64,000 nucleotides of DNA, from positions 17,092-81,091 of the forward strand of contig JAIOPD010000097.1 of NCBI GenBank assembly GCA_021414115.1. The letters run 5' to 3'. How positions within the stretch are numbered: the first letter of the stretch is position 1; each line of letters opens with the position of its first letter. Under the pieces are notes generated by a model. The model did no database searches. It saw nothing but the letters and a program-made list of their open reading frames with translations, and was not told where the DNA came from. Positions 9,825-26,823 of this stretch are shown here, piece after piece. This DNA is from Planctomycetia bacterium (GTDB lineage Bacteria; Planctomycetota; Planctomycetia; Pirellulales; UBA1268). The position numbers and the translations under genes are program-made.

Positions 9825-9840
9825 TCCCGCGAGGGAATCG

Positions 9841-12414
9841 ATGACTGGCATGATGCGTGTGGCCATCGTCTTGGGCGTGGCCGCGATGGCACCGGCTGCC
9901 GCCGGGGCCGGCGGGTGGCATGAGGGCCGACATCTCGTGCGGCCCGACGCCGCAGCGACACAGCTTGTTCCGTTCGACGTGGTTCTCGCGTCGGACGAGG
10001 CGGTCGCCGACATCTACGTGGCGCGAGAGGATGCCGCCGTCGTCCACACGGCGGCCCGCCTACTGGCCGACGATATCGAGAAAACGTCGGGCCGCCGTCC
10101 CCAGATCACGCCCGACGCCGCCGCGCTCGGCCGGACGGCGGTGCTGATCGGCACGCTTGGCGCGTCGCCGCTGATCGACGACGTGGTCGCGAAGGCCGCC
10201 ATCGACACCGGCCGAATTCGGGGACGCTGGGAGGCCTTTGGCATCCAGACCGTGCAGCAACCCATCGCCGGCGTGGAACGGGCACTGCTCATCATCGGCA
10301 GCGACCGCCGCGGCACGGCCTATGGCGTGATGGAATTATGCCGTGCCATCGGGGTATCGCCGTGGCACTACTGGGCGGACGTGCCAGCCCCGAAGCGGCA
10401 GCGTGTGGTGGCGGGCAGTGAGTCGCTGGTCACGTCAGCGCCGAGCGTGCAGTACCGCGGCATCTTCATCAACGACGAATGGCTCACGATGCTGCCGTGG
10501 GTGGCCACCACGCTCGACCCGCAGGCGAAACTTCGGCCGGGGCCGGCCCTCTATACAAAGGTGTTCGAGTTGATGCTCCGGCTGCGGCTCAACCTGCTCT
10601 GGCCGCCGGCGTGGAAGCACGAGTTTGGTGAGATCCCGGGAAATTTCGCCCTGGCAGACGAATGGGGCATCGTCATCGGATCGTCCCACTGCGAGGCGAT
10701 GCTGCGATCGAATCACGTGTGCCTGGACCGCCGGCCTGAGTTGACGCCGTGGCGGTATGACACCAACCGCAACCCGATCCTTGCCTACTGGGAGGAATCA
10801 GCCCGCGACCGTGGCGCGTTCGAGGCTGTGTGGACGGTCGGCATGCGAGGGGGCGCCGACACGCCGTTCGAGGGGCCGGAGACCGCGGAGGGCAAGGCCC
10901 GGCTCATGGAGCAGGTCGTGGCCGATCAGCGGGGCCTGCTCGAGACGCACGTGCGGCCACACCGCGCCGCGATCCCACAGTGCTTCATGCCCTATACCGA
11001 CGTGCTCGAAATCTACGACGCCGGCCTCCGGCTTCCGGACGACGTGACGATCGTCTGGCCGGAAGACAACTGGGGCAATATCCGCCGGCTGCCGACGACT
11101 GCCGAACGCGGGCGTTCCGGAGGTCACGGCATCTACTACCACGTCGATTACTTCGGTCCGCCAGAGCAATACACCTGGTTCAACACCACGCCCCCGGCCC
11201 GTATCTGGGCGGAAATGCGAAAGGCCTGGGACAACGGCGTCCGCCGGCTCTGGGTATTGAACGTCGGTGAAATCAAATCACAGGAGGTATGCACCGATTT
11301 CTGGGCCCGGCTGGCCTGGAACATCGACGGCTTCGGCCCGGACTCGCAGCCGGCGTATCTGGAGGCCCTGGCCGCGGAATGGTTTGGCCCCGAGCGTGCT
11401 CCAGACGTGGCCGCGATCTGGGGAGAGTTCTTTCGGCTCTGCTGTGTGCGGAAGCCGGAACACCTCTACGACGTCCGATGGATCGCGGAACTCGGGCCCG
11501 AGATGCGGGCCAGCCTCCTGCAGTCTTATCAGGCGCTCACCGATCGCCTCGATGCGTGCCGGAAGCAGATCGCTCCCGAGATGCAGGATGCCTTCTTCGC
11601 GACTGTGTATTACCCGGCCAGGATGCTCTGCGCTGCAGGGCTGATGAGCCTGCACCGTGACCGTAGTTTCCGCGAAGCGGCCACTCCCGAGGTCGCTAAG
11701 GCGAGTGCTGCCGAGGCGGACTGCTGGCAGGCCTGCATCGACGAGGAAACCAACGCCTTCAACATGGCCCTCGCCGGCGGCAAGTGGCGACATATGATGG
11801 TCGTGGCCATGAACTGCCATCCCTCCTGCCCCGAGCCGCAGGCCGTGCTCATGGGCAAGAAGCCCTGGGACAAGTATGTCTTCGATCGTTGCGCGCAAGG
11901 TCCGGCACGCCGTTCGCTGGTGGCAACCTTTGCCGGCGGCGACCACTCCGATAAGTCAGAGGCTCCCGGCGCAACCTGGCACACGATCACGGGGTTGGGC
12001 TGGACGGGCCGAGCCGTGACGCTCCTGCCCATGGTGGAGGAAAACAATTGGGAGTTGGCTAAAGACGTCGATGCCGTGCCGCACGTGGACTATCGCTTTG
12101 AGTCTGAGGCGAAGAGTGGGGATCTCGTGGCACTCGTCCATATCCTGCCGTCCTTTCGGCTCCATCCCGGCATGGACCTGCGGGTAGCCGTGAGCGTTGA
12201 TGGGGCCCCGCCGCAGATTCAAGAGGTGCCCATGAGCGTGCCGGCCAAGGGATGGGAAGACCAGATGGGATCGCGGCGTGATGCGGTGCGCAACAACCGC
12301 ACGACGTTGTCGTTCTCATTCACGGGTGTCACCGTGGGAGCCCATAGAGTTCGACTCTGGACGCCGTCGCCCGGCGTCGTTGTGGATCAGGTTGATATCG
12401 TGGAACGACGATAG
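9841..12414 (+). CDS. Glycoside hydrolase family 115-like (putative alpha-glucuronidase)
   Basis: ORF 9799..12414; RGTAYGVMELCRAIGVSPWHYWADV, QYRGIFINDEWLTMLPW, LRLNLLWPPAWKHEFGEIPGNFALADEWGIVIGSSHCEAML, VWPEDNWGNIRRLP, GGHGIYYHVDYFGPP resemble GH115 enzymes. Start 9841 gives a signal peptide. Confidence 0.85.
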   Translation: MTGMMRVAIVLGVAAMAPAAAGAGGWHEGRHLVRPDAAATQLVPFDVVLASDEAVADIYVAREDAAVVHTAARLLADDIEKTSGRRPQITPDAAALGRTAVLIGTLGASPLIDDVVAKAAIDTGRIRGRWEAFGIQTVQQPIAGVERALLIIGSDRRGTAYGVMELCRAIGVSPWHYWADVPAPKRQRVVAGSESLVTSAPSVQYRGIFINDEWLTMLPWVATTLDPQAKLRPGPALYTKVFELMLRLRLNLLWPPAWKHEFGEIPGNFALADEWGIVIGSSHCEAMLRSNHVCLDRRPELTPWRYDTNRNPILAYWEESARDRGAFEAVWTVGMRGGADTPFEGPETAEGKARLMEQVVADQRGLLETHVRPHRAAIPQCFMPYTDVLEIYDAGLRLPDDVTIVWPEDNWGNIRRLPTTAERGRSGGHGIYYHVDYFGPPEQYTWFNTTPPARIWAEMRKAWDNGVRRLWVLNVGEIKSQEVCTDFWARLAWNIDGFGPDSQPAYLEALAAEWFGPERAPDVAAIWGEFFRLCCVRKPEHLYDVRWIAELGPEMRASLLQSYQALTDRLDACRKQIAPEMQDAFFATVYYPARMLCAAGLMSLHRDRSFREAATPEVAKASAAEADCWQACIDEETNAFNMALAGGKWRHMMVVAMNCHPSCPEPQAVLMGKKPWDKYVFDRCAQGPARRSLVATFAGGDHSDKSEAPGATWHTITGLGWTGRAVTLLPMVEENNWELAKDVDAVPHVDYRFESEAKSGDLVALVHILPSFRLHPGMDLRVAVSVDGAPPQIQEVPMSVPAKGWEDQMGSRRDAVRNNRTTLSFSFTGVTVGAHRVRLWTPSPGVVVDQVDIVERR

Positions 12415-12491
12415 CCCGGTCCTGCATCGCCACTAGCCACTATTGGCGATCGTTCTGCCGCTCCGGCAGATTAGGCTCGAGTCTTCCTACC

Positions 12492-15362
12492 ATGCGCGTA
12501 ATCCACTCTTTCTCCCATACGCCGCTCCTGATTGCGTTCGTCGCGTTGACGTGCCAGAGTCGGTTGCATGCAGCTCCGGTCGTTTCGGGTTTCGAACGCT
12601 TCGGCCGACCGGCTGTCGTTGCCGGTGAACGTCCTGCTACGGTCGAGGCTGGCCTGCTGCTCCTGGGCGAACTCGGCTGCGTGAACTGTCATGCCGCCCA
12701 GCCCGATGCTGCCCGGCACCTTTCGGTAAAGACTGGACCATCGCTGGCTGGCGCTGGCGGACGCATCAATCCGGCGTGGGTGCTCGACTACCTGAAGCAG
12801 CCCCATGCCGTTCGTCCATCCACGACGATGCCGGATGTTCTTGCCGGCGTGCCGGATCGAGATCGCGCTGCGACAGGACTGACGCACTACCTCGCATCCA
12901 CGGCGGGCTTTGACGACGGCGCGTTCCCGGAGGCATCGAAGGCCAAGGCCGACATCGGAGCTGCGCTCTACGAGCGGGTCGGCTGCGCCGTCTGCCATGG
13001 CTCCCGCCTGCCGAACGCCGCGCGGCTACCGGATCAGGTGCCACTCACACAGATCGATCGGAAGTGGTCGCCATCGGCACTCGACGAGTTTCTGCGTGAC
13101 CCCTTTGCGGTTCGTCCCTCCAGCCGAATGCCGGCGCTGCCGCTCAGCGATCAGGACCGCCGGCATCTCACGGCAGCCCTTCTCGGGTCGCTCCCCGAAT
13201 CGAGGGGCGACTACCGAGACGCGGTCGCGTTCATCGGCCATGCCTGGCTCGCCGCGATCCAACGGCTGCCGCCGCACGATTCGCTCGGGCCTCCCGCGAA
13301 GTCCGGGCCGGTCAAGGGCTTGGATGTCTTCGCCTTGGCCGGGCAACGCGATGGGGTCGTCGTGCAACTCGACGGGTTTCTCCATGCCCCGCGCGACGGA
13401 CAGTATCGCTTCTACCTGTCGAGCGACGACGGGAGTCGCGTGACGGTCGGAGACCGTGTCGTCATGGAATATGACGGCATCCACGCCGCGTCGGAGCGGG
13501 AAGGAATCATCGACCTGAAAGCGGGCGTTCATCCTATTCGCATCGACTATTTCGAGGGGCAGGGTCTGGAGGAACTGCGGGTGGACGTCGTCGTTCCACG
13601 AGGACCGAGGCTGCATCTCGCGGCGTGGGTGACGCCGACGCCCGACGGCACGCCGGCCGTTCGGCCGGCGGATGCCAAGCCGCTTGGGCAAGACTTTCCC
13701 ATTGACCAGTCGCTCGTCGAGCACGGTCGGGCCATCTTCGCAGCCGTCGGATGCGCCAACTGCCACGCCATGCCCGACGAGAACGGTGAGCGGACGACTT
13801 CCCGGGTGGTCGCCACCCCGCTGGCAAAGTTGCGGGTGGAGGATCGTGGCTGTCTGTCGGCCGATGTCAGTGCATCCGGCCCACGGTATGGCCTCGATGG
13901 CGAACAACGGGGTGCACTCCTTACTGCACTGGCTTGGATCAGATCCGCGGAGGCACAGCGACCACCGGAGCGGCAGTTGATCATCGACCGAGCCTTCACG
14001 GCGCTGAACTGCTATGCCTGCCATGAACGAGACGGCCGGGGCGGGGTCGTGCCGGCGGTTGCACGGCTCGACGACGACGGCGAACCTGTCAGAAAAGAAG
14101 CCTCGCGGGACGCCCTCTTCTCCTCAGCGCACGCGGAGCTCGGAGACGAGGGACGGCTGCCTCCGTCGCTCACGAATGTTGGCGACAAGCTCCGGCGCGA
14201 ATTCCTCCGCGAGGTGCTGCATCGCGGTGGCCAGGATCGAGGGGCTTACATGAATACCCTGATGCCCAAGTGGCACCCGCCGGCTATCGATCCGCTCGTC
14301 CCCCTTCTCACCGAGGACACCTGCACGACGATGTCCACACCACCTCTCGTCGGCCATTCCGCTGAAGCGATCGCCGAACAGGGGCGGCACCTCGTCGGCT
14401 CGAAGGCTCTGGGATGCATCAAGTGCCACGCTTTCGCGGGCGAAAAGGGCCAGAGCCTGGGCGTGATCGACATGACGCGAATGCCCCACAGACTGCGTCA
14501 TGACTGGTTCCTCGCGTATGTCGCCAATCCACAGCGGTTTCGACCGGGCACACGCATGCCAGCCAGCTGGCCAGAGGGGAAGACCTTTTTTCCGGACATC
14601 CTCGACGGAACGGCTATGGGGCAGATTGAGGCCGCCTGGCGGTATCTCTCGGGCCCCACGCCAAAACCACCGATTGGCACGGGAGCGAATCCGATCGAGC
14701 TGGTTCCGGTCGGCAAGCCGATCATCTATCGCAACTTCATCGCCGGAGCGGGCCTGCGGGCCATCGGCGTCGGCTATCCGGAGAACGTCAGTGTGGCCTG
14801 GGATGCGGAACTGATGCGGCTGGCGCTGGTTTGGCGTGGCGCGTATATCGACGCGGGCCGGCACTGGAGCAATCGCGGCGGCGGCTGGCAGCCACCACTT
14901 GGCGACGGCGTGTTCACGCCGGAGGCGGCTGCTGCCGTGGCCGCGTTGCCAGAGCCATCGGGATCGTGGCCGACGAATCCGCGGTCATCGGGCGGGCGCT
15001 TCGGCGGCTACACGCTCGATCGCACCGGTCGACCGACGTTTCAATGGTCGGTCGATGGCATGCAGATTCGTGAAACGGTCGAACCGGCGCTCGAGGGCAC
15101 TTCGGTCTGGATCCGGCGCACAATCCGGCTGCATGGACGGCCAACGGCTGGCACAGCGTTCTTCCGCCCAATCGCTGCCGCGAAGGTCGAGGACGGCCAA
15201 GACGGCTGGTTGCGAATCGATGACAGTTGGCGGCTGAGAGTGGCTGGTAGCAGCCTGGGTGCCGGCATCGACGTGACCAATGCCGGAACACGCGAGCGGC
15301 GGTATCCGATCACCTGGACGGATGCCGACACGGCAGAGTTTACGGAGGAATTGGGATGGTGA
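12492..15362 (+). CDS. Multihaem cytochrome c with internal PA14-like domain (planctomycete type)
   Basis: Five CXXCH motifs (CVNCH, CAVCH, CANCH, CYACH, CIKCH) and a PA14-like stretch DGQYRFYLSSDDGSRVTVGDRVVMEYDGIH...GVHPIRIDYFEGQGLEELRV. Confidence 0.85.
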   Translation: MRVIHSFSHTPLLIAFVALTCQSRLHAAPVVSGFERFGRPAVVAGERPATVEAGLLLLGELGCVNCHAAQPDAARHLSVKTGPSLAGAGGRINPAWVLDYLKQPHAVRPSTTMPDVLAGVPDRDRAATGLTHYLASTAGFDDGAFPEASKAKADIGAALYERVGCAVCHGSRLPNAARLPDQVPLTQIDRKWSPSALDEFLRDPFAVRPSSRMPALPLSDQDRRHLTAALLGSLPESRGDYRDAVAFIGHAWLAAIQRLPPHDSLGPPAKSGPVKGLDVFALAGQRDGVVVQLDGFLHAPRDGQYRFYLSSDDGSRVTVGDRVVMEYDGIHAASEREGIIDLKAGVHPIRIDYFEGQGLEELRVDVVVPRGPRLHLAAWVTPTPDGTPAVRPADAKPLGQDFPIDQSLVEHGRAIFAAVGCANCHAMPDENGERTTSRVVATPLAKLRVEDRGCLSADVSASGPRYGLDGEQRGALLTALAWIRSAEAQRPPERQLIIDRAFTALNCYACHERDGRGGVVPAVARLDDDGEPVRKEASRDALFSSAHAELGDEGRLPPSLTNVGDKLRREFLREVLHRGGQDRGAYMNTLMPKWHPPAIDPLVPLLTEDTCTTMSTPPLVGHSAEAIAEQGRHLVGSKALGCIKCHAFAGEKGQSLGVIDMTRMPHRLRHDWFLAYVANPQRFRPGTRMPASWPEGKTFFPDILDGTAMGQIEAAWRYLSGPTPKPPIGTGANPIELVPVGKPIIYRNFIAGAGLRAIGVGYPENVSVAWDAELMRLALVWRGAYIDAGRHWSNRGGGWQPPLGDGVFTPEAAAAVAALPEPSGSWPTNPRSSGGRFGGYTLDRTGRPTFQWSVDGMQIRETVEPALEGTSVWIRRTIRLHGRPTAGTAFFRPIAAAKVEDGQDGWLRIDDSWRLRVAGSSLGAGIDVTNAGTRERRYPITWTDADTAEFTEELGW

Positions 15363-16840
15363 GGCTGTACCCGTTCTTCGCAACGGTGCTCGGAATGGTG
15401 TGTGCCGCGCAGGCGGCAGAGAAGCCGGCTGTTCTTACTGAGGCAGATGCTTACGCCATCACGTCGGTCCCCATGCCGCCGGACGTTTCGCTCGAAGTCG
15501 GTGGCCTCGAGTGGCTGCCGGATGGACGGCTCGCCGTTGCCACACGTCGCGGGGAGATCTGGATCGCGACGCAACCCGGGGCCGATGCTCCGACCTGGCG
15601 ACGTTTCGCCCACGGACTCCATGAAGTACTGGGGTTGGCGTGGCGGGATGGCTGGCTCTACGTGACGCAGTTTCCCGAGGTCAGCCGCCTACGGGATACC
15701 GACGGCGACGGCGAGGCCGATGTGTTCGAGACGGTGAGTGATGGCTGGGGGCTTTCCGGCGACCACCACGAATACACCTTCGGCTCAAAGTTCGATCGGG
15801 ACGGCGGCCTCTGGGTGGTGCTCTGTCTGACGGCGAGCGACCGCAGCGATGCGGCGTTCCGCGGCTGGGCCATGCGGATCACGCCGGACGGCCGCATGCT
15901 GCCGACGGTGTGTGGGATTCGTTCGCCGGGTGGTATCGGCTTCGACGCAGCCGGAAACGTCCTCTATACCGACAATCAGGGGTTCTGGAACGGCTGCTGC
16001 TCGCTCAGGCATTTGGTGCCAGGGGATTTTGCAGGCCACCCCGCGGGCCTCAAGTGGTATCACCTCGCGCCCAACATGGGGCCGAAGCCGCGGGAGCCGC
16101 AGAATGGCAGCCGTTGGGCGACGGAGGTCGAGAAGATACCCGCATTGCGACCGCCGGCGGTGATGTTTCCATACGGTGTCATGGGGGGCAGTGCGGCCGG
16201 AGTTGCCTGCGACACGACAGACGGGGCATTTGGACCGTTCACCGGGCAGGTGTTCGTGTGCGATCATGCGCAGTCGATGCTGATGAGATGCTCCCTCGAG
16301 AGCGTTGATGGGGTCTTGCAGGGAGCCTGCTTCAAGGTCCGAGAGGGGTTTCGGAGCGGATCCCTCGCCTTGCAGTTCGCGCCCGATGGTTCGCTCTACG
16401 TCGGCGGAACGAATCGCGGCTGGGGCTCCCGCGGAGCCGGTGATTTCGCCCTCGAAAGAGTGACATGGACGGGCCACACGCCGTTCGAGATCACGACCAT
16501 CCGGGCGGTGCCTGGCGGATTCGATCTAGAGTTCACGCAACCCGTGGATCCAACAACGGCTGCGGATCCGGCGAGCTACGTCGCGAAGGGCTTCACCTAC
16601 ATCCTCCAGTCGAGTTACGGTAGCCCCGTCGTCGATGAAATGCCCTGCCCGGTGTCGCGCGCCGAGCCGAGCAGCGACGGCCGTCATGTACGGCTCACGC
16701 TCGGGAATCTCCGTCATGGCCTCATTCACGAGATCAAGGGCGTCGGCGTGCGCAATCAGGCTGGGCAGCCCCTCGTGCATGACACTGGCTGGTACACGCT
16801 CAACCGGCTCGCGCGCTCGTCACCACCATCAAAGCCATAG
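15356..16840 (+). CDS. Beta-propeller sugar-dehydrogenase-like protein (putative membrane-bound dehydrogenase family)
   Basis: LEWLPDGRLAVATRRGEIWIATQPG, GLSGDHHEYTFGSKFDRDGGLWVVL, GGIGFDAAGNVLYTDNQGFWNG; ATG overlaps the upstream stop by 7 nt. Confidence 0.75.
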   Translation: MVRLYPFFATVLGMVCAAQAAEKPAVLTEADAYAITSVPMPPDVSLEVGGLEWLPDGRLAVATRRGEIWIATQPGADAPTWRRFAHGLHEVLGLAWRDGWLYVTQFPEVSRLRDTDGDGEADVFETVSDGWGLSGDHHEYTFGSKFDRDGGLWVVLCLTASDRSDAAFRGWAMRITPDGRMLPTVCGIRSPGGIGFDAAGNVLYTDNQGFWNGCCSLRHLVPGDFAGHPAGLKWYHLAPNMGPKPREPQNGSRWATEVEKIPALRPPAVMFPYGVMGGSAAGVACDTTDGAFGPFTGQVFVCDHAQSMLMRCSLESVDGVLQGACFKVREGFRSGSLALQFAPDGSLYVGGTNRGWGSRGAGDFALERVTWTGHTPFEITTIRAVPGGFDLEFTQPVDPTTAADPASYVAKGFTYILQSSYGSPVVDEMPCPVSRAEPSSDGRHVRLTLGNLRHGLIHEIKGVGVRNQAGQPLVHDTGWYTLNRLARSSPPSKP

Positions 16841-16872
16841 TCGGCTGCAGCGACTCTCACTGGACCCACACG

Positions 16873-19443
16873 ATGTGCGGCATTGACATGACACAACGGA
16901 GAAGCAATGTGAACCTGCCGATGAAAGCGATTGGGGCAGCGGTGCTGATGTTCGTTGGTGGCTCGACCTCCGCCGAGGATAGGCGCGAGCCACTCTCGTT
17001 CACTCGTGACATCCGTCCGCTCCTGTCGGACAACTGCTTTCATTGTCACGGTCCAGATGCCGGCCATCGGCAGGCCGACCTTCGGCTCGATGTGCGCGAC
17101 GAGGCCGTGGCCGCCAAGGCCATCGTGCCGGGCAAGGCGGCGGAGAGTTCACTGGTCGAGCGGATCCGCGCTACCGACCCCGATGTCGTGATGCCGCCGC
17201 CGGAGTCGCACAAAAAACTCGATGCTCGGCAGCAGGATCTGATAGCCCGCTGGATCGACGAGGGTGCCACCTACCAGAAGCATTGGGCCTACGAGCCGCC
17301 CGTGAAGCCCCAGGTGCCGGCGGGCACAAACGCGATCGACCAATTGGTCGGAGCCCGGCTGAAGACGCTGGGGCTCAAGTCGGCAGCGGAGGCGGACCGC
17401 CGTGCGCTCAGCCGGCGGCTGTCGTTCGACCTGACGGGCCTGCCGCCGACGCCACAAGAGGTGGACGCGTTCGTCAACGACCCGTCACCCGACGCCTACG
17501 CAAGGCTCGTCGAGCGGCTGCTCGCCAGTCCGCATTACGGCGAACGGATGGCGATCGGCTGGCTCGACGTGGTGCGATTTGCGGATACGGTCGGCTACCA
17601 CAGCGACAACCCGCGGAACGTTTGGCCCTACCGCGACTATGTGATCAAGAGCTTCAACGATAACAAGCCATTCGATCGGTTCACGATCGAGCAGATCGCC
17701 GGCGATCTGCTGCCCGAAGCGAACCAGGACACACGGATCGCCTCGTGCTTCAACCGGCTTTTGCTCACAACCGAAGAGGGGGGCGCGCAACCGAAGGACT
17801 ACGAAGCACGAATGCTCACCGACCGCGTGCGGGCCGTGGGCGCCGTCTGGCTCGGCCAGACCACCGGCTGCGCCGGGTGCCATGACCACAAGTTCGACCC
17901 GATCACGATGCGCGACTTCTATTCGCTCGCCGCATTTTTCGCCGACGTCGAAGAGCGGACCATTGGCAAGCGGGAAGACGGCATGGTCATAGCGCCACCG
18001 GAGGATGTGAAGAAACTCGCGGATCTTGATGCCTCTCTGGTTGCCGCAAAACAGAAGCGCGACAGTATTCTGCCCCAACTCGATGCGGCGCAGAAGCAGT
18101 GGGAACACGACGTCACCGCCTACGGAATCACGCTACCCGAGTTGAAGCCCGACTCGAAGGCCACCGACGCCGACAAGAAGACGGCTGAACTTGTTGCAGA
18201 CGCCCTTGGGAAGGAACTGGCCAAGCAGAGCGGGGGCGAGCGGGGGGAAATCCAAAAGTACTTCCGCACCAAGGCGTCGCCGCATTTGTTCCGCGCTGAA
18301 CAAGATGCGGTCACGAACGCCGAAAGAGACCGCACCGCTTTTTACAACACGCTGACGAAGTGCCTCGTCACGGTGAGAAGGCCCGCACCAGCCATCGTCC
18401 GCATCCTGCCCCGCGGCAACTGGATGGACGAGAGCGGCGAGGTGATGAAGCCGGCGTTTCCGGGCTACCTGCCGGCCCCCGCGATCGACGGCCGCGAGCC
18501 CAACCGCCTCGACCTCGCCCAATGGCTCGTTTCCCGCGACCATCCGCTCACGGCGCGGGTGGTGATGAACCGGCTCTGGAAGCAGTTCTTCGGCACGGGC
18601 CTGTCGCGGGTGCTCGACGATCTCGGCGCCCAGGGCGAGCCGCCGGTGAACCCCGAGCTGCTCGACTGGCTGGCCTGCGAGTTCATGGACTCGAAGTGGG
18701 ACCTCAAGCATATGGTCCGCACGATCGTGTCGAGCGCTGCCTACCGGCAGAGTTCCGTGGCCGCGGCCGAGACGATTGCCGCCGACCCAATGAACCGCGA
18801 ACTGGCGAGGCAGACAGCCTGGCGGGTCGATGCCGAACTCGTCCGCGATGCGGCACTGGCCACGTCGGGCCTGCTCGTCCGCACGATCGGCGGCCCGAGC
18901 GTGAAGCCCTACCAGCCCGACGGCTACTGGGAGAACCTCAACTTCCCGCCCCGCGTCTATCCGACCGACACCGGCGAGAAACAATATCGCCGCGGCCTCT
19001 ACACCTGGTGGCAGCGGTCGTTCCTTCACCCGAGCATGCTCGCCTTCGATGCGCCCAGCCGCGAGGAGTGTTGCGCGGAACGGACGCGGTCGAATATCCC
19101 GCAGCAGGCCCTCGCCCTGCTCAACGACCCGAGTTACGTCGAGGCCTCGCGGGCCTTTGCCGCATGGATCATGAAGGACGGCGGCAAGTCACCGGAGGAG
19201 CGGAGCGCCTGGGCGTGGCGACAGGTGCTCCAGCGAGTGCCACGGATCGAGGAGATGGAGACGGTTGTGCCGCTCTACCGGCAGCAGCTCGCCGCCTACC
19301 AGGCCGATCCGGCGGCCGCCGCGGCGCTGGTGAAGGTCGGCTTTGCTCCTGCCCCGACCGGCGTCGATTCCGCGGAACTTGCCGCCTGGACCCACGTGGC
19401 CCGTGTGCTCTTCAACCTCCACGAAACCATCACGAGGCCCTAG
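16873..19443 (+). CDS. Planctomycete cytochrome C / DUF1549 / DUF1553 domain protein
   Basis: FTRDIRPLLSDNCFHCHGPD (PSCyt1), SRRLSFDLTGLPPTPQEVDAFVNDPSPDAYARLVERLLASPHYGERMAIGWLDVVRFADT (PSCyt2/DUF1549), NRLDLAQWLVSRDHPLTARVVMNRLWKQFFGTGL (PSD1/DUF1553). Confidence 0.95.
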   Translation: MCGIDMTQRRSNVNLPMKAIGAAVLMFVGGSTSAEDRREPLSFTRDIRPLLSDNCFHCHGPDAGHRQADLRLDVRDEAVAAKAIVPGKAAESSLVERIRATDPDVVMPPPESHKKLDARQQDLIARWIDEGATYQKHWAYEPPVKPQVPAGTNAIDQLVGARLKTLGLKSAAEADRRALSRRLSFDLTGLPPTPQEVDAFVNDPSPDAYARLVERLLASPHYGERMAIGWLDVVRFADTVGYHSDNPRNVWPYRDYVIKSFNDNKPFDRFTIEQIAGDLLPEANQDTRIASCFNRLLLTTEEGGAQPKDYEARMLTDRVRAVGAVWLGQTTGCAGCHDHKFDPITMRDFYSLAAFFADVEERTIGKREDGMVIAPPEDVKKLADLDASLVAAKQKRDSILPQLDAAQKQWEHDVTAYGITLPELKPDSKATDADKKTAELVADALGKELAKQSGGERGEIQKYFRTKASPHLFRAEQDAVTNAERDRTAFYNTLTKCLVTVRRPAPAIVRILPRGNWMDESGEVMKPAFPGYLPAPAIDGREPNRLDLAQWLVSRDHPLTARVVMNRLWKQFFGTGLSRVLDDLGAQGEPPVNPELLDWLACEFMDSKWDLKHMVRTIVSSAAYRQSSVAAAETIAADPMNRELARQTAWRVDAELVRDAALATSGLLVRTIGGPSVKPYQPDGYWENLNFPPRVYPTDTGEKQYRRGLYTWWQRSFLHPSMLAFDAPSREECCAERTRSNIPQQALALLNDPSYVEASRAFAAWIMKDGGKSPEERSAWAWRQVLQRVPRIEEMETVVPLYRQQLAAYQADPAAAAALVKVGFAPAPTGVDSAELAAWTHVARVLFNLHETITRP

Positions 19444-19446
19444 ACC

Positions 19447-20868
19447 ATGGTGAATCTCCATCTTCACAACGCGATTGCTCGCCGCGCCTTCCTGGGGAAG
19501 ACCGCGCAGGGTGTCGGCGCCGCGGCGCTCGCGGCCCTTGCCGCCCCGCAGGCCGCCTCCGCCGCGCCGCTCCGCGGCGTGCTCGAGAAGCCGCCGCTGC
19601 CCCAGAAAGCGAAGCGGGTGATCTGGCTGACGATGGCCGGCGGCCCGTCGCACCTTGAGACGTTCGACCACAAGCCCAAGCTCGCCGAGATGCATGACCA
19701 GCCGATGCCGGAAAGCATGACCAAGGGGCAGCAGCTGGCGCAGCTGCAGGGGCAAAAGCTCGTCTGCTTCGGGCCGCAACATGGATTCAAGCCGATGGGC
19801 CCCAACGGCACCCACATCTGCGAACTGTTTCCGCAGATCGGCTCGGTGCTTGGCGACATCTGCCTCATCCGCTCCATGACGACCGACGCGATCAACCATG
19901 ACCCGGCCCACATGTTCATGAACACAGGCTCGCAGATCGCGGGTCGGCCGAGCATGGGCTCATGGGTCACTTACGGCCTCGGCAGCGAGGCGGCCGACCT
20001 GCCGGGCTTCGTAGTGCTCACGTCGCTGGGCAAGGGAGGCCAAAACCAACCAATCGCCGCGCGGCAATGGTCGAGCGGGTTCCTGCCGAGCCGCTATCAA
20101 GGCGTGCAGCTGCGCGGCAAGGGCGACCCGGTTCTCTACCTCGGCAACCCAGCCGGCGTCACCCGTGACCGGCAGGGGCTCGACATCGCCGCCATCAACG
20201 CGCTCAACGCCCAACACGACGCGCTCACCGGCGACCCGGAGATCGCCACGCGAATCGCGCAATACGAGATGGCGTTTGCGATGCAGGCGAGCGTGCCGGA
20301 ACTCATGTACACGAAGAACGAGAGCGCGGCCACGCTTGAACTCTACGGCTGCCAGCCCGGCGACGGCTCGTTCGCTGCGAACTGCCTCCTCGCCCGCCGG
20401 CTCGCCGAGCGCGGCGTGCGGTTCATCCAGCTCTACCACAAGGACTGGGACCACCACGGCGGCGTCAAGGAGGGCATCGCCCTCAAGGCCGCCGAGATCG
20501 ACCGGGCCTGCATGGCGCTGATCACCGATCTCAAGACTCGCGGCATGCTCGACAGCACGCTCATCGTATGGGCGGGGGAGTTTGGCCGCACGCCGATGTC
20601 GCAAGGAGGCAACGGCCGCGACCACCACAACAAGGCGATGACCGTCTGGCTCGCCGGCGGCGGCATCAAGGGGGGCGTCGTCCACGGATCGACCGACGAC
20701 CTCGGCTACGCGGCCGTGGACAAGGTCTGCACCGTGCACGATCTCCACGCCACCATGCTTAACCAACTCGGCATCCGCCACGACGCATTCAGCGTGAAAT
20801 TCCAGGGACTCGACGCGAAGCTCACAGGCGTCGAAGGCGCGCGCGTGATCAACGAGATACTTGGTTAG
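19447..20868 (+). CDS. DUF1501 domain protein (Tat-exported, sulfatase-like fold)
   Basis: N-terminal ARRAFLGKTAQGVGAAALAALA; WLTMAGGPSHLETFDHKP, VWAGEFGRTPMSQGGNGRDHHNKAMTVWLAGGGIKGG are DUF1501 hallmarks. Confidence 0.95.
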   Translation: MVNLHLHNAIARRAFLGKTAQGVGAAALAALAAPQAASAAPLRGVLEKPPLPQKAKRVIWLTMAGGPSHLETFDHKPKLAEMHDQPMPESMTKGQQLAQLQGQKLVCFGPQHGFKPMGPNGTHICELFPQIGSVLGDICLIRSMTTDAINHDPAHMFMNTGSQIAGRPSMGSWVTYGLGSEAADLPGFVVLTSLGKGGQNQPIAARQWSSGFLPSRYQGVQLRGKGDPVLYLGNPAGVTRDRQGLDIAAINALNAQHDALTGDPEIATRIAQYEMAFAMQASVPELMYTKNESAATLELYGCQPGDGSFAANCLLARRLAERGVRFIQLYHKDWDHHGGVKEGIALKAAEIDRACMALITDLKTRGMLDSTLIVWAGEFGRTPMSQGGNGRDHHNKAMTVWLAGGGIKGGVVHGSTDDLGYAAVDKVCTVHDLHATMLNQLGIRHDAFSVKFQGLDAKLTGVEGARVINEILG

Positions 20869-20972
20869 GCCGAGGTCGACGCTTTCACCTGCGGGTAATT
20901 CGCTTATTCCCGGTTGTCGATTCCCATCCCGGCGGAAGCCTTGGGCTTAGCAATTCCAATGGGCCTGGCCGA

Positions 20973-22154
20973 TCAGGGCTGGTCGATGATCACGAGTGTT
21001 GCGTCGTCAACGACGATGCTGCCAGTCTCCAGGCCGGCGGCGGCCAGGAGCACCTGGAACTGCACGGTAACCGTGCCGGCAGGGGCCTTCGCGGCGAGGC
21101 GGCCTTCGACGAACTCATCTATCGGCCCGGCATGCTTGAGAAAATGCCGCTCCGCCGACGCGAACGGCCGATCGGCCGCGTCGGTGAACGTGAACTTCAC
21201 GAACGCTCGCTGAGGAACGGCAAGCGGGTCGTCGATCGATTGTGTCACCCGCATGGTCGCCATCATCGTCTTGCCCGCGATGTCACCGGTGTCGATCTGA
21301 TGCCAGACGAGCGGCCAAAACGGATTGCCCTTCGCGTGAATCCTCGCGGCCTGCGAGCCGGTCGCCGCGGTGTGGCTGACGAGATCGACGTACCCGAAGG
21401 AACGGCGCCAGGGGCCGAAGGCAAAGTTTCGTTGGCCGGGGACTGTCGGCGGCCCATCGACTAGCGCCTGCGCATCATCCAGTTGCTCGAACGCCGCCGC
21501 CCGCAAGACATTTTCCCCGGCCGCCAAGGCCTCGTCGTCGAACGGAATAACGACGGCCGTCTCGGCATGGTCGTGCCAGAACCGAAGGTCGTCGGTGGCC
21601 TAGCCGTCAGGATCGATGGAAAGGGCTTGGCCCGCCGTCACCAACCGGGGTGCGTCGGCCGCATCCAGCCGCACCTTTCCCTCGAACACGCCGACGCGGG
21701 TGTGGACGCCCGCCTCCACGCTCACGGCAAACTCGGTTCCCAGGTCCGTGATGAGGCCCGTCGGCGTCTCGACCCGCAACTTTGTGCCGGGAGCCGGGTA
21801 GCGGATGGAGCCTGTCGAAAGCCCGATCGCGTCGCCGGAGATCGGTTCGAACACGGCTGGTCCTTCGATTACCGCCGTGCCGCCGGAGGAGCGATCGCGA
21901 AGTCCTTCGTCAGGTAGTCGCGGAGCGTGGCTGTAGCCCATTGACGGAACTGGGTGCCCCGGGGCCGAACGGTCGCGATAGCCGACGGCGATGACCACGT
22001 TGAGTGAGTCGTGGTCCACGATTCTTTCGATCGTCCGGGAGCACTCGGCCTGAACTATTCGGAATTTCCGAACAGTTGCCTCGGGCGGCAATTCGCCTTC
22101 GGAAAAGATGTTTTGGATGTGCTCGTTAATCGTGGGCGGCCAGTTCTGGGCCAT
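20973..22154 (-). pseudogene. Chimeric remnant: RhuM-family fragment (about 22154-21890, frameshifted) joined to 5'-truncated FecR-domain protein (about 21890-20973) with an in-frame TAG at 21600-21602
   Basis: INEHIQNIFSEGELPPEATVRKFRIVQ...VDHDSLNVVIAVGYRDRS then, in the next frame, RGTQFRQWATATLRDYLTKDFAI = RhuM-like; then AVIEGPAVFEPISGDAIGLSTGSIRY...RVETPTGLITDLGTEFAVSVEAGVHTRVGVFEGKVRL = FecR-like. Codon phase continues across the TAG into ORF 20973..21527. Confidence 0.75.
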
Positions 22155-22233
22155 CTAAATTTTTGCCAAAAACACGGCATATCTAGTGATCCCTCCGAAT
22201 GTTGTCGGCGGGTAGTCTCTTCAAGGAGTCTTC

Positions 22234-22695
22234 ATGAATAGCGTTCTTGAGCAGCAGGTCGATGCACTAGCGCGACTTGCTTCGACGATCCGAACCGGCC
22301 TCACGCAAGCGGAACTCGCGGTGCCACCGATCAACGAGTTGCTTGCCGAGTTGGCCGAGATGGGTGTCTGCAATTTTGAATACGAGGGGCCGGCGGTCTA
22401 TTGCCGCCCGGCGGGCCGATCCAGCGACTACGACGAATCGTTCATCATCTACTCCGCCGCACTCACGCTGCCGGGCGGCATCGGGGCGGCCCTGTGGAGC
22501 TCGTGCGAATACAGCGAACGCGCGGAGCGCTTCTACAGCGAGCCGATTGATCTCCGATCCCGATTCGTCGCCTTCGCCCAGTGCCCTGGGCCGGTCAAGG
22601 CACTCGTCGTGTCGCATACGGGAAAACTGCTGGACGGCCTCCTGCGTGATGTCCGGCTGATTGGTGGAGACGGCCTTGCCGCCTCGCAGTTCTGA
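22234..22695 (+). CDS. Hypothetical island protein
   Basis: Strong SD CAAGGAGTCTTCATG; MNSVLEQQVDALARLASTIRTGLTQAELAVPPINELLAEL... Confidence 0.65.
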   Translation: MNSVLEQQVDALARLASTIRTGLTQAELAVPPINELLAELAEMGVCNFEYEGPAVYCRPAGRSSDYDESFIIYSAALTLPGGIGAALWSSCEYSERAERFYSEPIDLRSRFVAFAQCPGPVKALVVSHTGKLLDGLLRDVRLIGGDGLAASQF

Positions 22696-22828
22696 TCAAT
22701 TCGCAGCCCGCATAACGCGGGCCTTCTGACGCCCCGGCACGTGGCCGGAGCGGTTTTTTCCTCCGTGCCGACGGCGACGCTCGCCATCGGCTGTCTTCCA
22801 CGCCCGGATTCTCCGGGAAGGAGTTTTC

Positions 22829-23089
22829 ATGTTCCGTGAAGATGCAGAGTTTCTTGAGACCGTGGCCCATGCCCTCGGCGAACGGGTGAGCCTCGTTCGC
22901 CAACGCGGCTTCAGCCTCGTTGGCTCCAACGGGGAACGAGCCTCCGATGGGCACGATGCCGGCGTCGATGAATCGGACCTGATCGACCTCGCGGCCAGCG
23001 GCTGGCTCGACTGGGATGCCCGCGATGATGTCCGCCCCTATCGCCGGCACGCCGCCGGCCGGCGGCGGAAGCGGCTGAAGATCGCCTGA
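22829..23089 (+). CDS. Hypothetical small island protein
   Basis: Strong SD GGAAGGAGTTTTCATG; MFREDAEFLETVAHALGERVSLVRQ... Confidence 0.6.
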   Translation: MFREDAEFLETVAHALGERVSLVRQRGFSLVGSNGERASDGHDAGVDESDLIDLAASGWLDWDARDDVRPYRRHAAGRRRKRLKIA

Positions 23090-23105
23090 TCTTCCCGCGA
23101 TGTGA

Positions 23106-23153
23106 GCCGATGGCGTGATGCGAGGCGGAAGGCCGCCCAGCCACGCCATCGGC
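23106..23153. repeat. Perfect 12-bp inverted repeat (hairpin) between island ORFs
   Basis: GCCGATGGCGTG (23106-23117) ... CACGCCATCGGC (23142-23153). Confidence 0.8.
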
Positions 23154-23181
23154 GTTTCTATTCCTTCAACGGAGCGACCAC

Positions 23182-23400
23182 ATGGCACCCGACAAGAGAC
23201 AAAACGATGACTCGTTTCCCGGTAGCATGGAGATGGCCGGCCCCGGCCCTGCCAGTATGGCGTATCGCGCTCAGACCGAGTTGGTGGAGACGCTGGCTCG
23301 ACTGGTTCTGGATTCGGTGGCGAAGACCAAACACGGCGACCGACATGGCGAATCCAAATCCGAAACCCCACGTGCCAGATTGGGTAAAGGACGAACTTGA
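23182..23400 (+). CDS. Hypothetical small protein
   Basis: 72-aa ORF after AACGGAGCGACCACATG; overlaps the next ORF's start; weak support. Confidence 0.35.
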   Translation: MAPDKRQNDDSFPGSMEMAGPGPASMAYRAQTELVETLARLVLDSVAKTKHGDRHGESKSETPRARLGKGRT

Positions 23401-23989
23401 GAAGGCCTACCACCGCGTCCAAAACCTGACGGCGGCACAGCGGCTTTGGGACCGGGTCTTCACCGAGAAGGACCGCCGGAAGTGCGGCGGCACCCTCGCG
23501 AGAGCGTGGACGCCAGAAACCGCACTGACGGTCGGCATGTATTGCACCGCTCGCGGGACCACCGCCGACCGGGCACTCGTGGAAGTCGCGCATGCCCTCG
23601 GCTTTCTCAATGACCGGCTGCGGGCAGATTTGCTCGACGCCCTCCGGGAGGAACCTGCCGAGCGTGATCCCGAGAAGCCGCATTGGGACAGGCGGGCCGG
23701 TGAGTTGCGGTTCAGGGGCGCAGTGGTCCGCGAGGTGCCGAAGGTCGGCCGCTCGCACAACATCGTTCCGATTCTCGACGCATTCGAGGAGGACGGATGG
23801 CCTCCGGAAATTGACGACCCGCTGACCAGCGGCGGTAGCGACGATCGCCGCCGCCGGGCCGTCGAGACTCTGAACAAGCAGATGCTCAAGCCGTGGATGT
23901 GGTTCCAGTGCAATGGTGACGGCACCGGCTTTCGCTGGCGAGCGAAGCCGCGGCCGGCCAAAAAAGCAGCCAAGCGAAAGCGGCGCTGA
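23345..23989 (+). CDS. Hypothetical island protein
   Basis: ORF 23102..23989 with internal ATG 23345: MANPNPKPHVPDWVKDELEKAYHRVQNLTAAQRLWDRVFTEKDRRKCGG...; C-terminal Lys/Arg-rich. Confidence 0.6.
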   Translation: MANPNPKPHVPDWVKDELEKAYHRVQNLTAAQRLWDRVFTEKDRRKCGGTLARAWTPETALTVGMYCTARGTTADRALVEVAHALGFLNDRLRADLLDALREEPAERDPEKPHWDRRAGELRFRGAVVREVPKVGRSHNIVPILDAFEEDGWPPEIDDPLTSGGSDDRRRRAVETLNKQMLKPWMWFQCNGDGTGFRWRAKPRPAKKAAKRKRR

Positions 23990-24166
23990 CCGCCGCGGCC
24001 CTCGCCGGCCATTTCGATGATCCGCTCGTGGTGAATCTGGCCACGACTACGTGAGCCCGTCGCACTCGCGGGGGGCCTTTTCTTTTCCCTTCGCGAGAGC
24101 TGCACCGTGGCGCCGTCCCGAGGACGGGCGCTCCGCGGATTCTTCCAGCAAAAGGAGTTTCAGAGT

Positions 24167-24514
24167 ATGGGCGGTGTTGATTCGATGCGAGTCGCGACGG
24201 ATGCGATGGCGAATCACGGTCGAGCATGGAGGTTATTCATCATGGCAGCCAGTCGGAATCTGGGGTGCGTGAAGCTCTCGGCAGACGAGCTCGCAACCAA
24301 CTTTGCGAGCGGCCCGTGGGCCGAGAAGTATCCGCCGATTCTCACGATCGCACAGGCGGCGGACATGCTGCAGGTGCCGGTCGGCACGCTTCGCTTCTGG
24401 CGAACCACCGGCCGGCTCAATGGCTGCAGCCGTCGCTACGGCCGCGTGCTCCGCTTCTACAGGGACCGCCTTATTCGGTGGTTTTTCGAGGGGGAGGGAC
24501 GCCGTGGCGCATGA
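24167..24514 (+). CDS. Helix-turn-helix (MerR/excisionase-like) DNA-binding protein, putative recombination directionality factor
   Basis: LTIAQAADMLQVPVGTLRFWRTTGRLNGCSRRYGRVLRFYRDRLIRWFFE; SD AAAAGGAGTTTC; lies immediately 5' of the integrase. Confidence 0.75.
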   Translation: MGGVDSMRVATDAMANHGRAWRLFIMAASRNLGCVKLSADELATNFASGPWAEKYPPILTIAQAADMLQVPVGTLRFWRTTGRLNGCSRRYGRVLRFYRDRLIRWFFEGEGRRGA

Positions 24515-25825
24515 CCGACCTTCCCGCGGCCGGAAAGCCGGCCGTGAATACGAGCGGATCGGGGAGCGGGTTTCAATATTCCTGAACGGCCGCGTCTGGT
24601 ACGCGAACTGGCAGGAGGGACCGAAGCAAAAGCGACAGACCCTCGGCACCCGCAACCACGATGTCGCGAGGCAAAAGGCCCGGGCCTGGAGGGCCAACTC
24701 TCCGGCGCGGTCCCGCGGCAGGCCGGCACGTTCGACATCGTCGGCGTCGTGCAGGCGTACCTCGACGTGCAGGAATCAAACGATCGAGCCGCCAAGACCA
24801 TGATGAAGTACCGGGATGTCCTCAATCGCTTTGCGGCCCACTGCCGCGACGCGGGCGTGCGGCTCATGCACGCGATCTCGGTACAGACCCTCGACGACTT
24901 CGCCGTGCGGCGGCGGCGGGATGGCATGGCCGCGAAGACCGTTTACACCGAGCTGACGATCGTCCGGCAGTGGCTCAACTTCGCCGTCACCCGCCGGATG
25001 CTCTCCATGAGCCCGGTCGCCGGCACGAAGCTCGTGAAGCCGAAGCGAGGCCCCCGTGACTATTGGCGGCAGGACGAGCTCGACGCGATCGTGGACGCCG
25101 CCAAGGGCCCCTATAAGGCCGCTTTCGTCCTGATGGCCGAGACCGGCATGCGGATCGGCGAGGTCGTCCACCTGACGCATAACGACCTGATATTGGATGG
25201 ACCGACCCCCGTAGCCCACATCCGGGCGAAGGAGGTCGTGCCCGGGGCGAAGCCGTGGCGGCCGAAGAACGGCGAGGAGCGGGTCGTGCCGCTCTCGCCA
25301 CGTGCCGTCGCCATGCTGCGAGACCTGCCACGCCGCCGCCGCTGGGTGATCGACCGGATGAACGGAACGACCGCCACCGCGACCCAGCCGACGAATGACC
25401 GCCACATCATCGCCTACCTCAAGACCGTGCTCGCGAAGCTCGGACTCGAGGGCACGAACCACAAGTTCCGGCACTCCTTCTGCACGATCGCCGTACTCGC
25501 CGGGGTGGACTTCTTCACCCTCCGTCGCTGGGTCGGCCATATCGATGAGGAGGCGCTGAAGATCTACGTCCACATCGCCGACGAGCAGGCCCAGCTTTCC
25601 ATGCGGCAACTCACCGAACGCCGCGAGGTCGACCGGATCCTTGCCGCCTGCAAGGGGCCGGGGAAGGCTGGCCGAGTCGGCGGCGACGTGGGAGCTGATG
25701 CCAGTGCCAAACCCGCACGGGGGCGGCAGGGCATCAGCAAAGTTTCAGCAAAGCCGTCCCGCGGTGGTCGCGGGGCGGGTGGTGGTTCAGCAAAGTTTCA
25801 GCAAAGTCATGGAGGTCAACAATGA
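24504..25825 (+). pseudogene. Tyrosine recombinase/phage-type integrase, apparently frameshifted near nt 24690
   Basis: GTG 24504: VAHDRPSRGRKAGREYERIGERVSIFLNGRVWYANWQEGPKQKRQTLGTRNHDVARQKARA (frame of ORF 24303..24803) then LEGQLSGAVPRQAGTFDIVGVVQAYLDVQESNDRAAKTMMKYRDVLNRF...ETGMRIGEVVHLTHNDL...HKFRHSFCTIAVLAGVDFFTLRRWVGHIDEEALKIYVHI (frame of ORF 24749..25825). The catalytic R..HxxR..H/W..Y region is intact. Confidence 0.85.
25735..25806. repeat. Two direct copies of CAGCAAAGTTTCAGCAAAG (each itself a CAGCAAAG duplet), candidate integrase arm-type sites
   Basis: Copies at 25735-25753 and 25788-25806, spacing 53 bp, between the integrase catalytic region and the att-like repeat. Confidence 0.6.
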
Positions 25826-25877
25826 CTCGCTATGCAATGAGCCTTGGAAACAAGGCGTGTTCGATTCGACGTTCTTC

Positions 25878-25900
25878 ACCAAACGGAGAGGGCGGGATTC
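25878..25900. repeat. att-like 23-bp direct repeat, copy 1 (ACCAAACGGAGAGGGCGGGATTC)
   Basis: Identical to 26650-26672, which spans the tRNA-Ser 3' end. Confidence 0.9.
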
Positions 25901-26075
25901 TCTCGGGCCTCTTCGCCACAGGTTCGGATTTTCTGCGATTCGACCCAGGCGAAATGGTACGGCGGAATCTGACGATTGCCGCAAAAATGCACGGGCGTAT
26001 ACTCTTGCTACAGGCGCGTGCATGAGTGCCAGAAAGCTGCACACCTCGCCGAACCTGCCTCAACGGGCCGTACGC

Positions 26076-26147
26076 ATGACAACAGTTCAACTCTCGCTTC
26101 CTGATGACCTCGCTCGCCAAGCGACGGAGGCACGCCGCGTGGGCTAA
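26076..26147 (+). CDS. Truncated antitoxin-like leader (23 aa)
   Basis: MTTVQLSLPDDLARQATEARRVG*; stop overlaps the PIN-gene start (TAATG). Resembles the N-terminus of antitoxins paired with PIN toxins but is much shorter. Confidence 0.5.
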   Translation: MTTVQLSLPDDLARQATEARRVG

Positions 26148-26593
26148 TGCCTACCACTGCGGCCCGGCCGCTGATCGCAGTGCTCGATACCAATGTCGTG
26201 ATCGCAGGGCTCTTGTGGGATGGCCCTCCCTATTCGCTGTTGACGCGAGCTACCAAGCGGCAAAACATCGTTCTTGCGACGAGCGTGATACTGTTGGCCG
26301 AACTCAGCGATACTCTCGCACTGCCGAAGTTTCGGAAACGGATAGCCGGTGCCGCAACGTCCGTCGACGAGTTGGTGGCACATTATCGTGCTCTGACGGC
26401 ACTGGTGAACCCTCGCGACGTGCCGCGTCTCGTCACTGATGACGTCGATGACGACCACGTGATTGCCGCAGCCGTGGCAGCTCGCGCGACCCACATTGTG
26501 ACCGGGGACCGCGCCCACCTGCTGCCCATTGGCACACACGGCGACATTGCGATCGTTTCGCCGCGGCAGTGCCTTGACTTACTCGGGGACTGA
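26147..26593 (+). CDS. PIN-domain toxin (VapC-like, COG1569/PIN_3 type)
   Basis: LIAVLDTNVVIAGLLWDGPPYSLL...ILLAELSDTLALPKFRKRI...PRLVTDDVDDDHVIAAAVAARATHIVTGDRAHLLPIGTHGDIAIVSPRQCLDLL; conserved Asp residues and TGD present. Confidence 0.88.
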   Translation: MPTTAARPLIAVLDTNVVIAGLLWDGPPYSLLTRATKRQNIVLATSVILLAELSDTLALPKFRKRIAGAATSVDELVAHYRALTALVNPRDVPRLVTDDVDDDHVIAAAVAARATHIVTGDRAHLLPIGTHGDIAIVSPRQCLDLLGD

Positions 26594-26649
26594 ACGGCCG
26601 CTTGGCACCACCGGCAACGCAAATGGAGGCCGATTCAACTCAACGGTAT

Positions 26650-26672
26650 CCAACCAAACGGAGAGGGCGGGA
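26650..26672. repeat. att-like 23-bp direct repeat, copy 2 (within/adjacent to tRNA-Ser 3' end)
   Basis: ACCAAACGGAGAGGGCGGGATTC identical to 25878-25900. Confidence 0.9.
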
Positions 26673-26747
26673 TTCGAACCCGCGGTCCAGCTTTTGACCG
26701 GACACGTCTTTAGCAAAGACGCGCATTCGACCACTCTGCCACCTCTC
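26656..26747 (-). tRNA. tRNA-Ser (anticodon GCT)
   Basis: Minus strand GGAGAGG...CGTCT TTGCTAA AGACG...long variable arm...GCGGG TTCGAAT CCCGC CCTCTCC G: paired acceptor, anticodon and T stems; no encoded CCA. Confidence 0.95.
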
Positions 26748-26823
26748 CGAAACCCGGAACCACGGCCGTGTCTTTCGCCACCTTCCCAGATCGGAAGGTC
26801 GCCCCGAACGCAGCCGCCGGAAC

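What the first reader, a model, noticed from the sequence alone, without database searches (positions are those of the whole stretch)
25878..26672. tRNA-Ser(GCT) att-type direct repeat enclosing a 0.77-kb PIN-toxin segment: candidate tandem or nested integration
The 23-bp sequence ACCAAACGGAGAGGGCGGGATTC occurs at 25878-25900 and 26650-26672. The second copy is the 3' end of tRNA-Ser(GCT) (minus strand) plus 7 bp beyond it. Copy 1 lies about 50 bp downstream of a tyrosine integrase. Integrases of this family often target tRNA 3' ends and sit next to the att site, so copy 1 is probably the att junction of the integrase element. The DNA between the repeats would then be a second unit with no recombinase of its own that carries only a toxin gene. 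A very small passenger mobilised in trans by a neighbouring integrase would be an interesting system.
Basis: partly seen in the sequence, partly recalled or inferred. Interest (0 to 1): 0.78.

Follow-up and report, generated by a model that had tools for sequence, protein, structure and literature searches.

The report
Decayed toxin-carrying island remnant beside tRNA-Ser
Next to a serine tRNA gene in a planctomycete, a 42-kb genomic island and a 0.78-kb leftover of a related island sit in tandem; the leftover keeps the island's ends and one toxin gene, so it looks like a relic of known island turnover rather than a new kind of tiny mobile element.

Summary
The 23-bp repeat is real; copy 2 is at 26653-26675, 3 bp from the stated place. 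A third copy of its 16-bp core lies 41.8 kb upstream, outside the window, and the genome has no other exact copy. So a 41.8-kb island (serine recombinase at the left end, excisionase-like gene and tyrosine integrase at the right end, polysaccharide-degradation cargo) and the 0.78-kb PIN segment sit in tandem at tRNA-Ser(GCT). A relative (G105) has the unoccupied site. The PIN segment is not an independent cassette. It carries the island family's left end (59 bp, 91.5% identical) and, less certainly, its right ~38 bp. Its PIN gene is 74-78% identical to PIN genes that in four relatives sit just behind the same serine recombinase. Everything else is gone, including the candidate integrase arm repeats. 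Its antitoxin has a 57-residue in-frame deletion, and the neighbouring integrase is frameshifted. The best reading is an internally deleted relic of a related island in tandem with a second integration (CIME-type accretion). Mobilisation in trans is not excluded but not favoured. Two wider patterns are more interesting: the position behind the recombinase holds interchangeable toxin-antitoxin modules, and toxin-antitoxin-only mini-segments recur at this tRNA.

The parts
1..25884 (.). Right-hand 25.9 kb of the 41.8-kb island (whole island C92:1180-42975; the left 15.9 kb lies upstream of the window)
   Evidence: Core copies at C92:1180 and 42976; ends conserved in relatives; cargo Pfam hits
24242..24514 (+). 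Excisionase-like MerR/HTH_17 protein (90 aa), overlapping the integrase start
   Evidence: Pfam HTH_17 5.7e-9; PHROG excisionase 3e-4; conserved upstream of intact integrases in L069 and L059
24504..25825 (+). Tyrosine integrase gene, frameshifted by a 1-nt deletion near 24684; open catalytic part 24749-25825
   Evidence: Pfam Phage_integrase 4.1e-20; alignment with three relatives that are open at this place
25734..25753 (+). Candidate arm-type repeat pair TCAGCAAAGTTTCAGCAAAG (right end, inner)
25787..25806 (+). Candidate arm-type repeat pair TCAGCAAAGTTTCAGCAAAG (right end, outer); a third pair is at the left end, C92:1325
25878..25900 (.). att core copy B: junction of island right end and PIN-segment left end
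25882..25940 (+). Island-type left end (core + TCTCGGGCCTCTTC...GGATTTTCTGCGATT), 91.5% identical over 59 bp to the left end of the 41.8-kb island
   Evidence: same left end in G053, G030, G016
25975..26005 (+). Upstream region of the toxin-antitoxin operon, 91-94% identical over 32 bp to G053 and G008
26076..26147 (+). Antitoxin remnant, 23 aa: 57-residue in-frame internal deletion of the 80-aa antitoxin
26147..26593 (+). PIN_3 toxin gene, 148 aa; acidic residues conserved in all compared homologues are kept
26622..26659 (+). Probable island-type right end (about 38 bp), weak homology
   Evidence: Alignment test; a separate HMM test did not detect it
26653..26675 (.). att core copy C: 3' 18 nt of tRNA-Ser(GCT) plus 5 bp
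26658..26749 (-). tRNA-Ser(GCT), integration target

Best explanation
Islands of one family repeatedly integrate at the 3' end of tRNA-Ser(GCT) in this planctomycete family; a tyrosine integrase encoded at the island's right end most likely does this, using a core of about 16-23 bp. In this genome two have landed in tandem. One is the 41.8-kb island between cores A and B. The other, between cores B and C, has been eroded by internal deletions to 0.78 kb: its left end, the toxin-antitoxin module that stood behind the island's serine recombinase, and probably its last ~38 bp. The erosion removed the recombinase, the integrase, the candidate arm sites and most of the antitoxin. The segment is therefore a CIME-like relic held between two att cores. 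It could at most be carried along when A recombines with C. Shown: three cores, shared ends, native context of the toxin gene, antitoxin deletion, missing arm repeats, an unoccupied site in a relative. Inferred: integrase chemistry, function of the arm repeats, loss of mobility, order of insertion.
For: Third core copy 41.8 kb upstream, no other exact copy. Right flank of A equals right flank of B, 59 bp at 91.5%. The island right end found left of B is directly attached to the tRNA core in about a dozen relatives. Tandems of the same family in G053, G014 and G030. Unoccupied site in G105: the unit that lies left of core A here sits directly against an intact tRNA-Ser(GCT) there. PIN homologues (74-78% identical) in four relatives are all just downstream of the same serine recombinase. 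Antitoxin 23 aa against 80 aa. No TCAGCAAAG within 1 mismatch in the segment; in the genome the paired repeat occurs three times, only at the 41.8-kb island's ends. Right-end similarity: mean z 2.66 against right ends of the family, 0.26 against other flanks. Internally deleted relatives of the island at the same tRNA in G053 (4.84 kb between cores) and G015, and a left-end remnant on contig C75 of this genome.
Against: The right-end homology is weak: a profile-HMM test missed it, and the z-score comparison uses related sequences. About 30 bp between the left end and the toxin operon are unassigned. The genome is a draft in 144 contigs, so the integrase frameshift could be an assembly error. 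Toxin-antitoxin-only segments recur at this tRNA (G025, the DUF6036 unit), which leaves room for something more active than decay.
Confidence: 0.86

Rival explanations
1. The PIN segment is a working minimal passenger: two att cores around a toxin gene, excised and reintegrated in trans by the neighbouring or an incoming integrase of the same family.
For: Cores on both sides are perfect; left end and probably right end kept; other toxin-antitoxin-only segments flanked by tRNA-Ser repeats exist: Phd/PIN in G025 between two complete tRNA copies and a DUF6036 unit in G105, G002 and this genome.
Against: Candidate arm repeats absent; neighbouring integrase frameshifted; antitoxin destroyed; no such segment at the tRNA in 36 relatives' loci, 35 of them with at least 0.8 kb of flank; PIN homologues sit behind the island recombinase instead.
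Confidence: 0.09
2. The PIN segment is old resident DNA next to the tRNA and the second core is an accidental or ancient duplication of the tRNA 3' end.
For: Left flanks of the tRNA vary widely among relatives.
Against: The segment begins with the mobile family's own left end and its genes belong to that family's recombinase-adjacent position; in G105 a different unit, the one left of core A here, abuts the tRNA.
Confidence: 0.02
3. The segment arose by unequal recombination or aberrant excision within a tandem pair (for example, pieces of two islands joined), not by stepwise decay of one separately integrated island.
For: Tandem homologous ends and identical cores would favour such events; 60-bp repeats of the recombinase 3' end flank the toxin-antitoxin module in G001.
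Against: The resident island carries a different toxin-antitoxin pair (DUF433/DUF5615), so the PIN module must have come from another island; divergence of the left ends (8.5%) also points to a separate arrival.
Confidence: 0.1

Closest known systems
CIME (cis-mobilizable element) accretion, as in ICESt1-related elements of Streptococcus thermophilus (Pavlovic et al. 2004, reviewed in PMC5704250)
   Same: Element that lost its integration genes but keeps att sites, in tandem with a second element at the same target gene; the integrate-decay-integrate scenario is the published one.
   Different: Far smaller (0.78 kb); only one toxin gene left; candidate arm sites lost, so retained att function is doubtful; tRNA-Ser(GCT) of Planctomycetota.
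Dehalococcoides ssrA genomic islands (PMC3146451)
   Same: Multiple tandem islands separated by direct repeats of a tmRNA 3' end, many lacking an integration module and described as possible cis-mobilizable elements.
   Different: There a serine recombinase at attL is the putative integrase and cargo is reductive dehalogenases; here a tyrosine integrase lies at the right end and a serine recombinase at the left.
PIN-domain type II toxin-antitoxin modules (PIN_3, TIGR00305)
   Same: Toxin domain complete; relatives have an overlapping upstream 80-aa antitoxin gene.
   Different: Here the antitoxin is a 23-aa remnant, so this is an orphan toxin gene. Toxicity was not tested.

Membership tests
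tRNA-targeting tyrosine-integrase genomic island (the 41.8-kb unit) | Flanking direct repeats equal to the 3' end of a tRNA gene | tested here: met
   Cores at C92:1180, 42976 and in the tRNA at 43751
tRNA-targeting tyrosine-integrase genomic island (the 41.8-kb unit) | Tyrosine integrase next to one end | tested here: met
   Pfam Phage_integrase 4.1e-20, ends 53 bp from core B; gene frameshifted
tRNA-targeting tyrosine-integrase genomic island (the 41.8-kb unit) | Unoccupied target site in a relative | tested here: met
   G105:C26, L150
ICE (integrative and conjugative element) | Relaxase and conjugation genes | tested here: not met
   None among the island products scanned with Pfam; a few called ORFs were not scanned
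CIME (cis-mobilizable element; the PIN segment) | No integration or transfer genes | tested here: met
   Six-frame translation of the segment: only the antitoxin remnant and PIN gene recognised
CIME (cis-mobilizable element; the PIN segment) | Derived by deletion from a related element | tested here: met
   Left end 59 bp, native context of the toxin gene, right end suggestive
CIME (cis-mobilizable element; the PIN segment) | Retained attL and attR sites able to recombine | tested here: inconclusive
   Cores intact, candidate arm repeats absent; recombination itself not testable here
PIN type II toxin-antitoxin module | PIN toxin domain with conserved acidic residues | tested here: met
PIN type II toxin-antitoxin module | Intact cognate antitoxin next to it | tested here: not met
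   23 aa against 80 aa in four relatives; no homologue found elsewhere in the genome, without positive control

The most novel reading that the evidence does not exclude
The 3' end of tRNA-Ser(GCT) in this family acts as a collecting site for att-flanked toxin-antitoxin-only cassettes of 0.8-1.1 kb (PIN_3, DUF6036 nucleotidyltransferase, Phd/PIN). They would be shuffled in trans by resident integrases and exchanged with a toxin-antitoxin slot behind the islands' serine recombinase, loosely like a gene-cassette array without its own integrase.
Probability: 0.07. Interest if true: 0.75.

Novelty: new member of a known kind. Interest (0 to 1): 0.36.

Why it matters
It documents island accretion and decay at a tRNA gene in a poorly studied phylum, with the occupied, tandem, eroded and empty states visible in different relatives. 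It suggests how a toxin gene can outlast the island that brought it and even its own antitoxin, which bears on how orphan toxins arise. The exchangeable toxin-antitoxin slot behind the serine recombinase (at least five module types, empty in five loci) is a testable case of modular exchange.

Tried and rejected
The 1-mismatch core on contig C87 was checked for element ends and rejected. Profile-HMM detection of the segment's right end failed; an alignment anchored on the core, against family right ends and control flanks, gave support, so this end is marked as weak. Joining contigs C75 and C92 through a shared IS end was considered; the bases flanking the IS ends do not match as a target-site duplication, so no join is claimed. 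Chance repetition was rejected. A genome-contig scan with the integrase gave four planctomycete MAGs plus one distant Enterococcus hit. Rfam gave nothing for the 86-bp inter-core hairpin of relatives. One paper search combining Planctomycetes, genomic island, tRNA, integrase and toxin-antitoxin returned nothing on this system.

Full report
Observation. The 23-mer ACCAAACGGAGAGGGCGGGATTC occurs exactly twice in the window, at 25878-25900 and 26653-26675, with no match expected by chance even at three mismatches. It comprises the last 18 nt of tRNA-Ser(GCT), 26658-26749 on the minus strand, plus 5 bp downstream.

The missing left att. In the whole genome (4.35 Mb, 144 contigs) the 16-bp core GGAGAGGGCGGGATTC has three exact copies, all on the window's contig C92: A at 1180, B at 42976 (window 25885) and C in the tRNA at 43751. 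Window position = C92 position - 17091. A and B bound 41.8 kb; B and C bound 775 bp. Between A and B there is no other core within 3 mismatches except one isolated match at 9036, and the end sequences occur only at the two places described.

The 41.8-kb island. Its left end encodes a large serine recombinase (C92:1449-3473; Resolvase and Recombinase domains). Its right end encodes an excisionase-like HTH protein and a tyrosine integrase. Cargo includes GH115, a BNR/sialidase-like protein, an MFS transporter, a DHDPS-family protein, a 2527-aa PATR/PEP-CTERM protein and PSCyt/DUF1501 proteins. No relaxase or conjugation gene was seen among the scanned products. Close integrase relatives come from planctomycete MAGs. 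The integrase gene has a one-base deletion near window 24684 relative to three relatives whose reading frame is open there; in a draft assembly this could be an error.

The family and its ends. In about a dozen relatives the sequence immediately left of the tRNA core is the right end found left of core B (GTTCGATTCGACGTT...). The left end found right of core A also occurs right of cores in G053, G030 and G016, and with more differences in G014. Tandem islands, with a right end on one side of a core and a left end on the other, are seen in G053 and G014 as well as here; in G030 the two ends are separated by two cores 87 bp apart. A paired repeat TCAGCAAAGTTTCAGCAAAG lies about 145 bp inside the left end and about 80-150 bp inside the right end. 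Across 72 genomes of the family it is found at 18 places, and in this genome only at the three places at the ends of the 41.8-kb island. I infer that these are integrase arm sites.

Unoccupied site. The 0.84 kb left of core A (a DUF6036 nucleotidyltransferase gene and a partner ORF) is conserved in relatives. In G105 this unit lies directly against an intact tRNA-Ser(GCT) with no island between...CCATTCAAAC|GGAGAGGGCGGGATTCGAACCCGCGG. In the window genome the same ...CCATTCAAAC|GGAGAGGGCGGGATTC is followed by the island's left end. In G002 the unit is also followed by core and island left end. So everything from A to C (42.6 kb) is inserted at the tRNA 3' end relative to G105. G105's contig ends just beyond the tRNA, so synteny on the far side is not visible there.

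What the PIN segment is. (1) Its first 59 bp are 91.5% identical to the left end of the 41.8-kb island. (2) Its PIN protein is 74-78% identical to proteins in G001, G008, G029 and G053, and in all four the gene sits just downstream of the same serine recombinase; in G008 and G053 that recombinase is itself broken. (3) In those relatives the PIN gene is preceded by an 80-aa antitoxin gene; here 57 residues are missing in frame and 23 aa remain, while the toxin's conserved acidic residues are kept. (4) The last ~38 bp before core C align in register with island right ends (mean z 2.66 against members, 0.26 against other flanks, Mann-Whitney p 5e-6, with the caveat that the sequences are related); an HMM test was negative, so this end is probable, not proven. 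(5) No candidate arm repeat remains, even at one mismatch. The segment is therefore best read as an internally deleted island, not a separately built cassette. Parallel erosion is visible elsewhere: 4.84 kb between cores in G053 with truncated recombinase and integrase, a truncated island in G015, and a left end fused to a recombinase fragment on contig C75 of this genome.

Mechanism. The most likely history is integration of one island, its decay, and integration of a second island at the shared core, either at the outer core of the relic or, in the other order, at the tRNA. This is the published accretion scenario (PMC5704250; compare PMC3146451). The relic could leave with its neighbour if A recombined with C. 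Independent excision between B and C is possible in principle because the cores are perfect, but the missing arm repeats argue against it, and the resident integrase looks broken. The resident island carries a different toxin-antitoxin pair (DUF433/DUF5615), so the PIN module came from another island.

Wider pattern. The position between the serine recombinase and a conserved small downstream gene is variable: DUF433/DUF5615 (C92, G015), antitoxin/PIN_3 (G001, G029, G053, G008, and a damaged copy in G051), another PIN pair (G015, G014, G100, C86 of this genome), nucleotidyltransferase/HEPN (G053; a similar pair in G030), DUF2442 (G037), and nothing in five loci. Toxin-antitoxin-only segments between tRNA-Ser repeats also occur in G025 (Phd/PIN between two complete tRNA copies), and the DUF6036 unit carries a diverged tRNA-Ser 3' end on its far side. 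Retention of such modules during island decay, because their loss is costly, would explain this; active exchange is the more novel alternative. Neither was tested.

Verdict. Observation confirmed with a 3-bp correction. Tandem integration supported; independent trans-mobilised passenger not supported. Ordinary in kind, with an unusually complete comparative record.

Noticed in passing
C92:3474-4579 (upstream of window) and L040, L041, L073-L076, L124, L127, L128, L132, L135, L138: The interval behind the serine recombinase holds different toxin-antitoxin modules in different islands and is empty (about 90-130 bp) in five loci (L126, L129, L087, L131, L133).
   Followed up: partly
L074 2055-2114 and 2963-3022: About 60 bp of the serine recombinase 3' end is repeated on both sides of the antitoxin/PIN module in G001, as if the module had been inserted at the gene's end.
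   Followed up: no
L053 (G025), reverse complement 9370-10520: Two complete identical tRNA-Ser(GCT) genes (99-bp exact repeat) 1052 bp apart enclose a Phd/PIN toxin-antitoxin pair.
   Followed up: partly
L087 250-336 (G030) and L060 (G045): An 86-87 bp segment between two att cores folds into two strong hairpins (an inverted copy of the tRNA 3' end and a terminator-like stem; z -6.1 and -5.5); no Rfam match.
   Followed up: partly
C92:332-1170 (upstream of window); L146, L150: A DUF6036 nucleotidyltransferase unit of 0.84 kb with a diverged tRNA-Ser 3' end at its far side; in G105 it abuts the intact tRNA.
   Followed up: yes
L086 8611-9370 (G000:C75): Another island left end with a degenerate core (2 mismatches), fused to a serine-recombinase fragment and followed by two small ORFs.
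   Followed up: partly
L124, L125, L126, L128, L129, L130, L076, upstream of the serine recombinase: The same serine recombinase occurs with a different conserved upstream sequence (CCCGACAGGGATCGAACAAACGC...), in some loci near tRNA-Arg(CCG): possibly a second attachment site type.
   Followed up: no
window 914-8497: 2527-aa protein with PATR repeats and a PEP-CTERM signal inside the island.
   Followed up: no
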